In this document: positions 8,681 to 10,623 of the stretch, in pieces | Layout of the letters: every line of letters begins with the position of its first letter | Numbering within the stretch: the first letter of the stretch is position 1 | Assembly (NCBI GenBank): GCA_017477505.1 | Contig: JAFUVQ010000054.1 | Location: 124,001-188,000, forward strand | Length of the DNA stretch: 64,000 nt | Direction of reading: 5' to 3' | Source of the DNA: Eubacterium sp. | GTDB lineage: Bacteria > Bacillota > Clostridia > Lachnospirales > Lachnospiraceae | The notes under the pieces: model-generated | The model's input: the letters and a program-made list of their open reading frames with translations, nothing else | Databases searched by the model: none | Told to the model about the DNA's origin: nothing | Made by a program: the position numbers and the translations under genes

Positions 8681-8840
8681 TATTGTTGACGGAGCATGAC
8701 ATGACAATGCGAGGCGTGATATGACAATGCGAGGTGTGACATGACAATGCGAGGCGTGATATGACAATGCGAGGTGTGACAAGATAGGAAGAGACGTGAC
8801 AAGATAGGACGAAACGTGACAAGATAGGACGAGGCAGGAT
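8681..8840 (+). repeat. Seven-unit 20-bp tandem repeat between methyltransferase gene and nadK
   Basis: Seven contiguous units in perfect 20-bp phase occupy 8701-8840. Four have the form ATGACAATGCGAGGYGTGAY (8701, 8721, 8741, 8761), alternating GCGTGAT and GTGTGAC endings, so the pair itself is a 40-bp higher-order unit. Three have the form AAGATAGGACGARRCRKGAY (8781, 8801, 8821). A degenerate unit is visible at 8681-8700. There are no spacers, so it is not a CRISPR. No gene is encoded. The 233-nt gap is otherwise featureless. Confidence 0.95.
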
Positions 8841-8908: not shown

Positions 8909-9763
8909 ATGAATCGCAGGATTACAAAATTCCTTATAATAGCTAATTATTCAAAAAAAGGAGCGGTGGAAGCTGCTAATCGTGTTCTTGAGTATATTGA
9001 GGATAAGGGACTCGAGGCAAAGATATCGATCAGTGATGAAGATATAAAGGATGGCCTTATTAGAGAGGACCTTATTAAGGATGCGGAGTGTGCCATAGTT
9101 CTGGGAGGAGACGGAACTCTGATCAGGGCAGTTCATACCATAAGAAAGCATCCTATCCCTATGGTGGGGGTAAATTTCGGGACTATTGGATTCCTTACGG
9201 ACGTTGATATAGAAGACACGCAGAGCATGATCGACAGGCTGATCGAAGGCGACTATGAAACAGAAGAGAGGATGCTTCTTTCGGGAACCGTAAGAGGTGT
9301 CATGGAAGAAAGGATGATCGCTCTGAATGATATAGTCGTTGCCCGTTCAGATGCACTTCGTCTTATAGCTCTCAGAATATCACTGAATGGCCAGTTTTTT
9401 GATGAGTATGAGGCGGACGGAGTTATAGTTTCGACTCCTACAGGGTCAACAGGCTACAATCTTTCCGCAGGAGGGCCTGTGGTTAATCCCAAAACCAGTC
9501 TTCTTGTGATAACACCTATATCTCCATTTGCCATGGCGAAAAAAAGCATTGTTTTTGACGCTGATGACAAGGTTGAGATAGAACTTATGGAGAAGAGGAA
9601 GGATCAGGATGACGGGGCTCTCGTATCATTTGACGGATATGAAAATATTCAGCTTCAGGTTGGAGATGTAGTTGACATAAGACGGTCGAAGCATACGGTT
9701 ACCCTGCTTCGATTCAGTGATATGAATTTCTATGAGAGATTGAGGAGTAAAATCAGAAACTGA
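8909..9763 (+). CDS. nadK: NAD kinase
   Basis: 284 residues. It phosphorylates NAD to NADP using ATP or polyphosphate. The GGDGT signature (VLGGDGTLIRAV, about residues 65-73), GVNFGTIGFLTDV and the second nucleotide-binding element DGVIVSTPTGSTGYNLSAGGPVV (about residues 169-191) are all intact. The last seven codons and stop (KIRN region) form the left copy of a 23-bp direct repeat that reappears just before argR, so the original nadK-argR junction has been split by a cassette. Confidence 0.96.
   Translation: MNRRITKFLIIANYSKKGAVEAANRVLEYIEDKGLEAKISISDEDIKDGLIREDLIKDAECAIVLGGDGTLIRAVHTIRKHPIPMVGVNFGTIGFLTDVDIEDTQSMIDRLIEGDYETEERMLLSGTVRGVMEERMIALNDIVVARSDALRLIALRISLNGQFFDEYEADGVIVSTPTGSTGYNLSAGGPVVNPKTSLLVITPISPFAMAKKSIVFDADDKVEIELMEKRKDQDDGALVSFDGYENIQLQVGDVVDIRRSKHTVTLLRFSDMNFYERLRSKIRN
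9741..9763 (+). repeat. Left 23-bp direct repeat (nadK 3' end)
   Basis: The sequence beginning TGAGGAGTAAAATC and ending at the nadK stop is identical at all 23 positions to 10150-10172. The two copies bound a 386-bp insert that carries the toxin-antitoxin-like locus. They look like target-site or attachment-site duplications. Confidence 0.93.
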
Positions 9764-9790: not shown

Positions 9791-9819
9791 TTGAATAATG
9801 GTACTTACTGTGGTAATAT
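9791..9819 (+). promoter_or_regulatory. Promoter of the putative antitoxin RNA
   Basis: TTGAAT (9791-9796), a 17-nt spacer and TAATAT (9814-9819), with TGG immediately before the -10 giving an extended -10. The predicted start is near 9826. It lies 28 nt after nadK and is followed by no + strand reading frame, only a short segment ending in a terminator. Confidence 0.75.
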
Positions 9820-9825
9820 AGTCTT

Positions 9826-9896
9826 GTAATGTGGACATATTAAAGGCGAACCCCCCGACACATTGTCGTAAATGTCGGGGGGTTCTTCCTCTTTTT
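9826..9896 (+). ncRNA. Putative antisense (antitoxin) RNA of a type I toxin-antitoxin locus
   Basis: A predicted RNA of about 70 nt from the promoter at 9791-9819 to the terminator at 9848-9896. Its 5' end contains TGTAATGTGGACAT (9825-9838), identical to 10002-10015. Because the toxin gene is read from the opposite strand, the RNA is complementary over 14 nt to the toxin start codon and codons 2-5 (AUGUCCACAUUACA). The terminator stem is also shared with the toxin transcript. This is the geometry of the Fst/par type I family: convergent RNAs, common terminator and dispersed direct repeats that create the antisense pairing. Transcription has not been shown. Confidence 0.68.
9848..9896. terminator. 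Shared bidirectional terminator of the convergent locus
   Basis: A perfect 13-bp stem, GAACCCCCCGACA (9848-9860) with TGTCGGGGGGTTC (9873-9885) and a 12-nt loop. On the + strand it is followed by TTCCTCTTTTT, a fair U-tract; on the minus strand only by GCCTTTAAT, a weaker one. It ends both the putative antisense RNA and the toxin mRNA and would also stop transcription running from nadK towards argR. Confidence 0.88.
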
Positions 9897-9922
9897 ATGG
9901 TAGTGAGGTGGCTACAGGCTGA

Positions 9923-10015
9923 TTATCGTTCCTGTTTTCTGTCCAGCCATTTGCAGATATAATTGCTGATTATACCTGCCATGACAGATATGAGCAGGCT
10001 ATGTAATGTGGACAT
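9923..10015 (-). CDS. 30-residue hydrophobic toxin-like peptide
   Basis: A 30-codon gene read leftward from ATG 10015 to TAA 9923-9925. It has one of the best ribosome-binding sites in the window (AAAGGAGGTG, 5 nt before the start). The peptide has a short polar start, a single hydrophobic helix (about residues 4-20, ending SNYIC) and a charged tail KWLDRKQER. That matches Fst/Ldr-like and related small membrane toxins, whose helix is followed by a tryptophan/leucine and charged residues. The start codon region is exactly repeated at 9825-9838 in the opposing RNA. Too short for routine gene callers. Membrane toxicity is inference from architecture. Confidence 0.75.
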   Translation of the reverse strand: MSTLHSLLISVMAGIISNYICKWLDRKQER

Positions 10016-10061
10016 TTTCTCACCTCCTTTCAGGATGCTGAGAATAGTCGATAATGAAATA

Positions 10062-10091
10062 ATTGTATTATTATAGTATATAATAAGTAAA
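10062..10091 (-). promoter_or_regulatory. Candidate promoter of the toxin-like gene
   Basis: On the minus strand TTTACT (10086-10091) and TACAAT (10062-10067) are 18 nt apart. A perfect TATAAT at 10070-10075 lies in the same AT-rich tract but has no good -35. Either would start an mRNA some 40-50 nt before the peptide start. Confidence 0.45.
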
Positions 10092-10149: not shown

Positions 10150-10172
10150 TGAGGAGTAAAATCAGAAACTGA
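10150..10172 (+). repeat. Right 23-bp direct repeat (before argR)
   Basis: Perfect second copy of 9741-9763. It ends in the TGA that once would have closed nadK, 4 nt before the argR ATG at 10177. Removing the cassette plus one repeat copy gives a compact nadK-TGA-TATT-ATG-argR junction, which implies ancestral translational coupling and a later insertion. Confidence 0.93.
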
Positions 10173-10176
10173 TATT

Positions 10177-10623
10177 ATGAGAAAAACAGAAAGACAGAGA
10201 AAAATCGTTGAGATTATAAATGAAAAGAATATAGAAACGCAGGAAGAACTGCAGGCAGAGCTGTCAGGTCATGGGATTAAGACAACCCAGGCGACGCTGT
10301 CACGTGATATAAGGGAGCTTGGTCTCAGAAAGACCGGAGCCGGCAGCGGAAAACAGCATTATATAACCGGCGAGAGCGGAAGTATTAACGGTGCAGGATA
10401 CTACAGGGAGGTTCTCAGAACAGGTATCATATCTGTTGAGGAGGCTGAGAATCTTGTAGTTGTAAAAACAGTATCCGGAGCTGCCATGGCAGCCGCTGCA
10501 GCCATAGATAACATGAATATAGAAGGTGTGGCCGGCTGTATAGCAGGTGACGATACTATATTTATAGCTGTAAAGAGAAGAGATGATATCCCCAGCATAA
10601 TCTCGGAACTAGGAAAAATGTGA
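10177..10623 (+). CDS. argR: Arginine repressor ArgR
   Basis: 148 residues. The N-terminal winged helix (RQRKIVEIINEKNIETQEELQAELSGHGIKTTQATLSRDIRELGLRKT) and the C-terminal oligomerisation and arginine-binding domain (NLVVVKTVSGAAMAAAAAIDNM...GVAGCIAGDDTIFIAVK) are complete. ArgR represses arginine biosynthesis and can activate catabolism as an arginine-bound hexamer. No good Shine-Dalgarno sequence precedes the ATG. The gene probably relied on translational coupling to nadK before the 10-kb cassette separated them. It keeps its usual place upstream of recN. Confidence 0.95.
   Translation: MRKTERQRKIVEIINEKNIETQEELQAELSGHGIKTTQATLSRDIRELGLRKTGAGSGKQHYITGESGSINGAGYYREVLRTGIISVEEAENLVVVKTVSGAAMAAAAAIDNMNIEGVAGCIAGDDTIFIAVKRRDDIPSIISELGKM

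What the first reader, a model, noticed from the sequence alone, without database searches (positions are those of the whole stretch)
9791..10091. Compact type I toxin-antitoxin-like locus with antisense pairing over the toxin start codon
Seen directly: (a) a 30-codon minus-strand gene (9923-10015) with a near-perfect ribosome-binding site and a one-helix peptide ending KWLDRKQER; (b) an opposing + strand promoter (TTGAAT-17-TAATAT, extended -10) with no reading frame after it; (c) a 13-bp shared terminator stem between the two; (d) the 14-mer TGTAATGTGGACAT present at both the 5' end of the + RNA (9825-9838) and the toxin start (10002-10015). Because the units face each other, the + RNA is complementary to the toxin start codon and next codons. 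Known: the Fst/par family of type I systems has convergent RNAs, a common terminator and dispersed direct repeats that give the antisense contact. Inference: the small RNA blocks toxin translation. I know of no description of this peptide in this setting.
Basis: partly seen in the sequence, partly recalled or inferred. Interest (0 to 1): 0.86.

Follow-up and report, generated by a model that had tools for sequence, protein, structure and literature searches.

The report
Par-type antisense-controlled membrane toxin locus
A very small bacterial gene for a one-helix membrane peptide faces a short RNA that pairs with its start codon, and relatives that keep this layout with different pairing sequences show it to be a toxin-antitoxin locus of the known Fst/par kind, in a large and poorly annotated branch.

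Summary
In detail: the 30-codon minus-strand ORF, its ribosome-binding site, the exact 14-mer at 9825 and 10002 and the 13-bp terminator stem are present. The decisive test is evolutionary. In 81 loci (window plus 80 relatives) the complementarity between toxin start and antisense region persists while its sequence changes: the native duplex beats all 20 swapped partners in 72 of 81. The same loci share a two-way terminator, sequestered ribosome-binding site, antitoxin-strand -10 box and a helix closing the 5' end on the stop codon, as in par/Fst (PMC7472228). Rfam's pneumococcal SpF66 matches the toxin RNA end to end (41.1 bits, gathering score 42) and is probably the toxin mRNA of a published Fst-like locus. 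Best reading: a chromosomal par-type type I toxin-antitoxin locus in an "ICKWLD" branch, matched in 63 of 200 genomes of the family and on plasmids. The conserved Trp-Leu codons covary with a motif beside the stop. No curated protein model reaches its cut-off. Toxicity and transcripts are untested.

The parts
9923..10015 (-). toxin ORF, 30 aa, one hydrophobic helix, SxxxG motif, Trp before charged tail
   Evidence: family alignment
10023..10028 (-). Shine-Dalgarno AGGAGG, 7 nt from ATG
   Evidence: sequence
10002..10015 (-). direct repeat copy at toxin start codon (target of antisense)
9825..9838 (+). direct repeat copy at the 5' end of the putative antitoxin RNA
   Evidence: native duplex stronger than all 20 swaps
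9791..9819 (+). putative antitoxin promoter TTGAAT-17-TAATAT with TGn; weak consensus
   Evidence: sequence; not listed by scan; antitoxin-strand TATAAT enriched in relatives
9822..9898 (+). inferred antitoxin RNA, about 72-77 nt (both ends inferred)
   Evidence: promoter and terminator positions; this stretch folded
9848..9885 (.). 13-bp stem-loop, shared two-way terminator
   Evidence: family-wide stems (no shuffled control)
9839..10055 (-). toxin mRNA, full-length match to Rfam SpF66_sRNA (RF02442), 41.1 bits, E 2e-8, gathering score 42
10049..10055 (-). 5' arm (ATTATCG) of the 5'-end helix
   Evidence: in the MFE
9922..9928 (-). 3' arm (CGATAAT) of the 5'-end helix, spans the stop codon
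   Evidence: in the MFE
10017..10044 (-). 5' hairpin that covers the Shine-Dalgarno (TTCTCA...TGAGAA)
   Evidence: MFE; SD unpaired probability 0.21 in the window against 0.28 with shuffled upstream
9944..9948 (-). GGCTG arm inside the Trp-Leu codons
   Evidence: same helix drawn in the Rfam SpF66 consensus
9917..9921 (-). CAGCC partner just after the stop codon
   Evidence: unpaired in the window's own MFE
10062..10091 (-). candidate toxin promoter TTTACT-18-TACAAT (RNA start near 10055 inferred)
9741..9763 (+). 23-bp direct repeat, 3' end of nadK, left flank of the cassette
10150..10172 (+). 23-bp direct repeat, second copy just before argR, right flank of the cassette

Best explanation
A chromosomal type I toxin-antitoxin locus of the par (Fst) type between nadK and argR. 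The minus-strand mRNA encodes a 30-residue single-helix membrane peptide (growth-inhibiting by inference from the family). A convergent RNA of about 70 nt from the + strand shares the terminator with it. The two RNAs are expected to meet at their complementary terminator hairpins and then pair over the 14 nt at the toxin start codon, blocking translation. Within the mRNA a 5' hairpin covers the Shine-Dalgarno site and the 5' end is closed on the stop-codon region, which would keep translation off until the antisense RNA has bound. Shown here: the sequence anatomy and its conservation and covariation in relatives. Inferred: transcription, translation block, toxicity, order of binding.
For: Complementarity kept with changing sequence: shared repeat of 10 or more in 59 of 81 relatives, against 42 of 1,620 swapped pairs and 4 of 81 inverted controls; native start/antisense duplex stronger than all 20 swaps in 72 of 81 and pairing with at least one base of the start codon in 79 of 81. 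TATAAT on the antitoxin strand in 50 of 81 against 17 of 81 on the other strand, TGnTATAAT 23 against 2. Terminator stem of 8 or more in 78 of 81, T-rich 3' side in 77, A-rich 5' side in 73. 5'-end helix of 6 or more Watson-Crick pairs in 46 of 81 against a permuted mean of 14% (maximum 21.8%), 33 different helix sequences. SD less accessible than with shuffled upstream in 68 of 81. Rfam SpF66 end-to-end match, also over plasmid relatives. The sister genome keeps terminator and antitoxin side at the same site without a toxin ORF. Four of 14 genus loci (L003, L008, L010, L014) lack the toxin's SD or start while the terminator side remains (by eye).
Against: No expression or toxicity data. The window's promoters are weak matches, the antitoxin one below the scan threshold; the toxin-direction T-tract is poor. 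No Pfam or NCBIfam model reached its cut-off for the window peptide. Profile comparison with four Fst-model peptides alone gives 10%. 9 of 81 loci do not beat all swaps; L050, L133 and L072 fail clearly; L002, with an intact ORF, has a shared repeat of only 8. The helix test is weaker with a wide 5' region (7 or more pairs in 24 of 81 against 166 of 1,620; 6 or more in 55 of 81 against 501 of 1,620); of three displaced controls (6, 7 and 14 of 81) the last lies above its own permuted mean of 9.2%. The simple SD-stem length test showed no difference from swaps. The terminator count has no shuffled control, and its stem finder took a non-terminator stem in L035.
Confidence: 0.87

Rival explanations
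1. The peptide is a small regulatory or structural membrane protein, not a toxin, whose translation is tuned by the antisense RNA.
For: Chromosomal position between housekeeping genes, shared with the sister genome; no toxicity data; the function of chromosomal par homologues is unclear (PMC7472228, sections 1 and 4 read).
Against: Presence on small and conjugative plasmids, tandem arrays, patchy distribution (63 of 200 genomes; 22 of 61 in the genus at E<=1) and loss of the toxin part with the other side kept fit an addiction-type module better.
Confidence: 0.1
2. The 'toxin mRNA' is mainly a structured regulatory RNA, as SpF66 is filed in Rfam, and the ORF is incidental.
For: Rfam lists the related pneumococcal RNA as an sRNA; conserved RNA structure.
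Against: CKWLD is invariant in the 69 aligned members while the Leu codon takes four forms; part of this is selection by the search pattern, which fixes most of that core, but the hydrophobic stretch and the SD lie outside the pattern. The D39 annotation calls the pneumococcal counterparts toxin peptides (PMC6212727, passages).
Confidence: 0.03

Closest known systems
par locus of Enterococcus plasmid pAD1 (Fst, RNA I/RNA II) and its chromosomal homologues
   Same: Convergent RNAs, shared two-way terminator, direct repeats giving antisense contact over the toxin start, 5' hairpin over the SD, 5'-end helix, peptide of about 30 residues with one helix and charged tail (PMC7472228: sections 1, 2, 4 and figure legends read).
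   Different: SxxxG and ICKWLD in place of the commonest PxxxG form; one clear repeat pair in the window, not two; sequence similarity to Fst models and peptides is weak.
[quoted passage not shown] Rfam SpF66 (F66 of Mann 2012)
   Same: Full-length RNA match over 9839-10055; the Rfam consensus can be read as V-C-K-W-L-D codons (my reading of the alignment); published as Fst-like type I TA RNAs (PMC9812572, section 17 read; PMC6212727, passages).
   Different: That F66 is one of these two loci is inferred from position: F66 lies between SP2168 and SP2169 (PMC3395615, passages), and that SP2168 is fucR is recalled. Window score is 0.9 bits under the gathering score; repeat sequence and host differ.
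Ldr/Rdl of enterobacteria
   Same: Best Pfam hit (E 0.0047) and shared Trp signature (PMC7472228).
   Different: 17.4 bits against a cut-off of 27; Ldr loci are regulated more like hok/sok (PMC7472228).
Clostridioides difficile type I TA modules (CD0977.1 and others)
   Same: Small membrane toxin with a convergent overlapping antisense RNA; NCBIfam NF047374 matches 32 of 69 members at E<=1, best 6.1e-5.
   Different: Window score 13.5 bits against a cut-off of 60; toxins of 30-56 aa with lysine-rich tails (PMC6563280, PMC7699646, passages).

Membership tests
par/Fst type I TA (regulatory anatomy) | Convergent toxin mRNA and antisense RNA sharing a two-way terminator | tested here: met
   Sequence anatomy; family-wide (terminator count without shuffled control). 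Transcription itself not testable here.
par/Fst type I TA (regulatory anatomy) | Direct repeats at toxin start and antitoxin 5' end giving antisense contact | tested here: met
   one repeat pair in the window, two in L013 and, by eye, L012
par/Fst type I TA (regulatory anatomy) | 5' stem-loop sequestering the SD | tested here: met
   MFE; 68 of 81; effect in the window itself small (0.21 against 0.28); stem-length test showed no difference
par/Fst type I TA (regulatory anatomy) | Upstream helix sequestering the mRNA 5' end | tested here: met
par/Fst type I TA (regulatory anatomy) | U-turn (YUNR) in the terminator loop | tested here: inconclusive
   UUUA is in the 12-nt loop by eye; not tested against chance; not present in all homologues (PMC7472228)
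Fst/Ldr toxin superfamily (peptide) | Trp between hydrophobic helix and charged tail, with P/D/S/TxxxG in the helix | tested here: met
   Window has S10xxxG14 and W23; many relatives have SxxxS or another residue in place of the Gly
Fst/Ldr toxin superfamily (peptide) | Score over the curated cut-off of NF033608 (Fst) or PF13940 (Ldr) | tested here: not met
   9.9 bits against 26 and 17.4 against 27. A bridging peptide, L188, is hit by the Fst model (E 0.008, below cut-off) and by the present profile (1.6e-7)
Type I toxin | Growth inhibition relieved by the antisense RNA | not testable with these tools
   needs an expression experiment
Rfam RF02442 SpF66_sRNA | Score over gathering threshold 42 | tested here: not met
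   41.1 bits in the window; over threshold in L035 and L088, 2 of 11 loci searched, and in L179, L182, L183, L184, 4 of 15

The most novel reading that the evidence does not exclude
The 'ICKWLD' loci are a separate, phylum-wide class of par-type systems in which the Trp-Leu residues of the toxin are constrained twice: as protein, and as one arm of a conserved mRNA helix with an AGCC motif beside the stop codon, which together with the 5'-end helix makes a folded-back, translation-silent mRNA. The helix as such is already drawn in Rfam's SpF66 consensus; the new part is its covariation across the class and the double constraint. The cassette may also move as a unit, as the 23-bp duplication of the nadK end around it hints. 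(Odds lowered from 0.35 on checking: the Rfam consensus already holds the helix, and the mobility support shrank.)
Probability: 0.3. Interest if true: 0.6.

Novelty: new member of a known kind. Interest (0 to 1): 0.45.

Why it matters
Close to a third of the sampled genera of this bacterial family (62 of 199), and many plasmid records of enterococci and streptococci, hold matches to a par-like module whose peptides stay under the cut-offs of the Fst and Ldr models as far as tested. The function of chromosomal Fst-type loci is still obscure (PMC7472228), and this gives a large comparative set, in part from commensals, for studying it and its RNA structure. It also suggests that an Rfam 'sRNA' family is a toxin mRNA family.

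Tried and rejected
Direct look-up of the 30-mer with the search for related loci failed (query too short). Pfam and NCBIfam hits other than Ldr, Fst and the C. difficile toxin (holins, ATPase subunit, GntP and the like) are weak hydrophobic-helix matches and were set aside, although the LydA holin model matched 13 of 69 members (best 0.0032), as many as Ldr (12 of 69). Phage records gave 16 hits, 14 of them below 60% identity and several plainly chance. No PDB chain matched at E<=10. First, wide tests of the 5'-end helix were weaker and the SD-stem length test was negative; the narrower tests were chosen after seeing where the helices lay, so their windows are not independent of the data.

Rows dropped. 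Of 118 pattern matches in L031-L146, 32 had no start with a ribosome-binding site by my rule (many look like intact peptides with another start; not re-counted), one more (L109) was excluded by hand, three lay too near an edge (L047, L067, L138) and one (L082) repeated a peptide already counted, leaving 81. For the later tests L036 fell out for lack of flank and the window was added, giving 81 again. For the alignment A2, 69 of the 82 peptides printed were used; near-duplicates and some short or odd starts were left out by eye.

Mobile cassette: flanking direct repeats of 23 or more at 6 of 89 family loci (window not counted) against 29 of 5,062 overlapping anchors elsewhere in the same contigs. 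Of the six, L064 and L095 hold a second copy of the locus (tandem duplication), L127 is similar over the next 60 nt (92%) and L140 over the 60 nt before (80%), so they are longer diverged repeats; L037 and L135, like the window, show no similarity beyond the repeat. This is only a lead.

Full report
What is there. Between nadK (8909-9763) and argR (10177-10623) lies a 413-bp gap holding a 30-codon minus-strand ORF with a strong ribosome-binding site, a 13-bp stem-loop, and a 14-mer present exactly twice in the window, at the ORF start and beyond the stem. Because the two units face each other, an RNA read from the + strand through 9825-9838 is complementary to the toxin start codon. A repeat of 14 or more in this geometry was found at 20 of 20,000 random placements, all of them at this locus; elsewhere it is 0 of 19,848. 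The promoters are weak on their own.

Relatives in the genus. A search of 61 genomes of the genus found matches at E<=1 in 22; 14 places, one in each of 14 genomes (L001-L014, the window included), carry the ICK(W/G)LDR core (by eye; one has VCKWLDR). In most intact ones a repeat is at the same places with another sequence: a 15-mer in L004 and L005, 12 in L006, 11 in L007, L009, L012 and L013, 14 in L011; L002 has only 8. Four (L003, L008, L010, L014) lack the SD or start while the terminator side remains (by eye); whether their antitoxin RNA is made is unknown.

Wider family. The 80 rows listed with titles are labelled Lachnospiraceae, Eubacterium, Phascolarctobacterium, Veillonella, Anaerococcus, Peptoniphilus, Gemella, Synergistaceae and others. 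None of the 118 matches lay in an ORF over 150 codons. For 81 with a scored start, enough flank and distinct peptide, the longest repeat shared by start region and downstream region is 10 or more in 59, against 42 of 1,620 swapped pairs and 4 of 81 inverted controls. With the window added and L036 dropped (81 loci), the duplex between toxin start and antisense region beats all 20 swaps in 72 and pairs with at least one start-codon base in 79. Nine do not beat all swaps; L050, L133 and L072 are the clearest failures.

RNA anatomy. Downstream stems of 8 or more pairs occur in 78 of 81, T-rich on the toxin side in 77 and A-rich on the other in 73; this count has no shuffled control and the finder chose a wrong stem at least once (L035). 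TATAAT on the antitoxin strand: 50 of 81 against 17 on the other strand. The SD is less accessible than with shuffled upstream sequence in 68 of 81 (means 0.22 and 0.38; Wilcoxon 1.8e-10; in the window 0.21 and 0.28), although stem length alone did not differ from swaps. A helix between -50..-28 and the stop region has 6 or more Watson-Crick pairs in 46 of 81, against a permuted mean of 14% (maximum 21.8%); displaced controls give 6, 7 and 14 of 81, the last above its own permuted mean of 9.2%; 33 different sequences fill the helix, in the window ATTATCG/CGATAAT. These correspond to the 5'-SL and 5'-UH of par (PMC7472228; sections 1, 2, 4 and legends read).

A further helix. The GG(C/T)TN of the Trp-Leu codons has its exact 5-base complement near the stop in 38 of 81 (permuted mean 20.9, maximum 29; arms shifted by -3, +3, +6: 1, 2, 3 of 81). 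Leu codons ending in G go with CA(G/A)CC and those ending in A with TA(G/A)CC: 27, 4, 0 and 24 among the 55 loci with just one of the two forms; of the other 26, 7 had both forms (the window among them), 10 only another first base and 9 no such motif. Fisher's 9e-12 ignores relatedness. The Rfam SpF66 consensus structure pairs the same bases, GGCuaG with CuaGCC (my reading of the alignment). The window's MFE leaves the CAGCC unpaired, so the helix may be an alternative or transient structure.

Link to known systems. Rfam SpF66 matches 9839-10055 (-) end to end with 41.1 bits (gathering 42; E 2e-8 in a 501-base search); in the whole-window scan at gathering thresholds nothing was reported. It passes the threshold in 2 of 11 loci searched (L035, L088). 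In a second set of 15, 4 pass (L179, L182, L183, L184), 4 match below threshold (L177, L178, L181 and, in part, L188), and L180, L209 and the five loci brought in by the Fst model (L185, L186, L189-L191) do not match at E<=0.1. F66 lies between SP2168 and SP2169, was seen by Northern, and its mutant had reduced nasopharyngeal fitness (PMC3395615, passages). [quoted passage not shown] PMC6212727, passages). That F66 is one of them is inferred from position.

Protein models are weaker: Ldr 0.0047 and Fst 0.63 for the window peptide, both under cut-off. Among 69 members at E<=1, NF047374 (C. difficile type I toxin) matches 32, Fst 8, Ldr 12, a holin model 13, phrog_738 60. Profile comparison with 4 Fst-model peptides gives 10%; with 6 sequences including L188 it gives 95.7%, but L188 is itself matched by the present profile, so that figure is inflated. 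L188 (MLEVLASLGFPIIAGVITHLICKWLDKEESK) has the PxxxG of Fst and the ICKWLD of this family. In G528 a locus over the Fst cut-off (L185) and a member of this family (L209, METLHSIVIAIMGNVAAYYIVKWLDWLITLIRGN) lie about 0.5 kb apart.

Distribution. 63 of 200 genomes of the family (62 of 199 genera) have a match at E<=1e-3, up to 7 in one genome; 11 of 299 across the phylum. For comparison the Fst model finds 4 of 299 at E<=0.01, 1 of them over cut-off. Plasmids: 436 of 72,556 records match a composite query at E<=10, 366 Enterococcus and 38 Streptococcus. Many of those E-values lie between 1 and 7, but the eight loci that I fetched (L177-L184) each show the ORF, a shared repeat of 10 to 17 and, by eye, a stem; in L184 the longest repeat lies further downstream, with a shorter one at the expected place by eye. 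The 40 rows and the 40 show no annotated feature under the match, though that gene table is incomplete by its own description. Tandem arrays occur: four copies about 395 bp apart in L195.

The site. In the nearest relative by NadK (G003, L148, 85%) the same gap is 228 bp and keeps the stem and the antitoxin side without a toxin ORF; in the next (G059, L149, 80%) the gap is 2 bp. NadK matched in 57 of 61 genomes; of the 30 loci fetched, 23 had argR downstream and 7 did not; only the window and L148 show TA parts in the gap, judged by eye. The window's cassette is flanked by an exact 23-bp duplication of the nadK end, not seen in L148.

Verdict. By anatomy and covariation a real type I toxin-antitoxin locus that should work like par; its peptide fits the broad Fst/Ldr signature but no curated protein model. 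Function in the cell is untested.

Noticed in passing
window 9741-9763 and 10150-10172: Exact 23-bp direct repeat duplicating the nadK 3' end on both sides of the 386-bp cassette, with no similarity beyond it; the sister genome lacks it. Repeats of 23 or more flank 6 of 89 family loci against 29 of 5,062 control anchors, but four of the six are longer or tandem duplications.
   Followed up: partly
L148 (G003), nadK-argR gap: Terminator and antitoxin side kept, toxin ORF gone: a possible orphan antitoxin RNA.
   Followed up: partly
L195, L197, L217, L064: Tandem arrays of two to four of these loci, about 340-540 bp apart, with different repeats.
   Followed up: partly
L140: Family locus flanked by a 41-bp repeat that looks like a tRNA 3' end (recalled pattern, no tRNA scan run), as at integrase attachment sites.
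   Followed up: no
81 family loci, near the stop codon: AGCCT within -6..+25 of the stop in 36 of 81, against 0 and 1 of 81 in two control stretches; explained at least in part by pairing with the Trp-Leu codons.
   Followed up: partly
Rfam RF02442: An Rfam 'sRNA' family (SpF66) appears to be a toxin mRNA family.
   Followed up: partly
window about 8705-8840: Run of short near-repeats (TGACATGACAATGCGAGG and similar, then TGACAAGATAGGA) between two genes, before nadK.
   Followed up: no
L185 494-583 and L209 990-1079 (G528): Skipping-rope RNA (RF02924) about 0.5 to 1 kb from an Fst-model locus and a member of this family.
   Followed up: no
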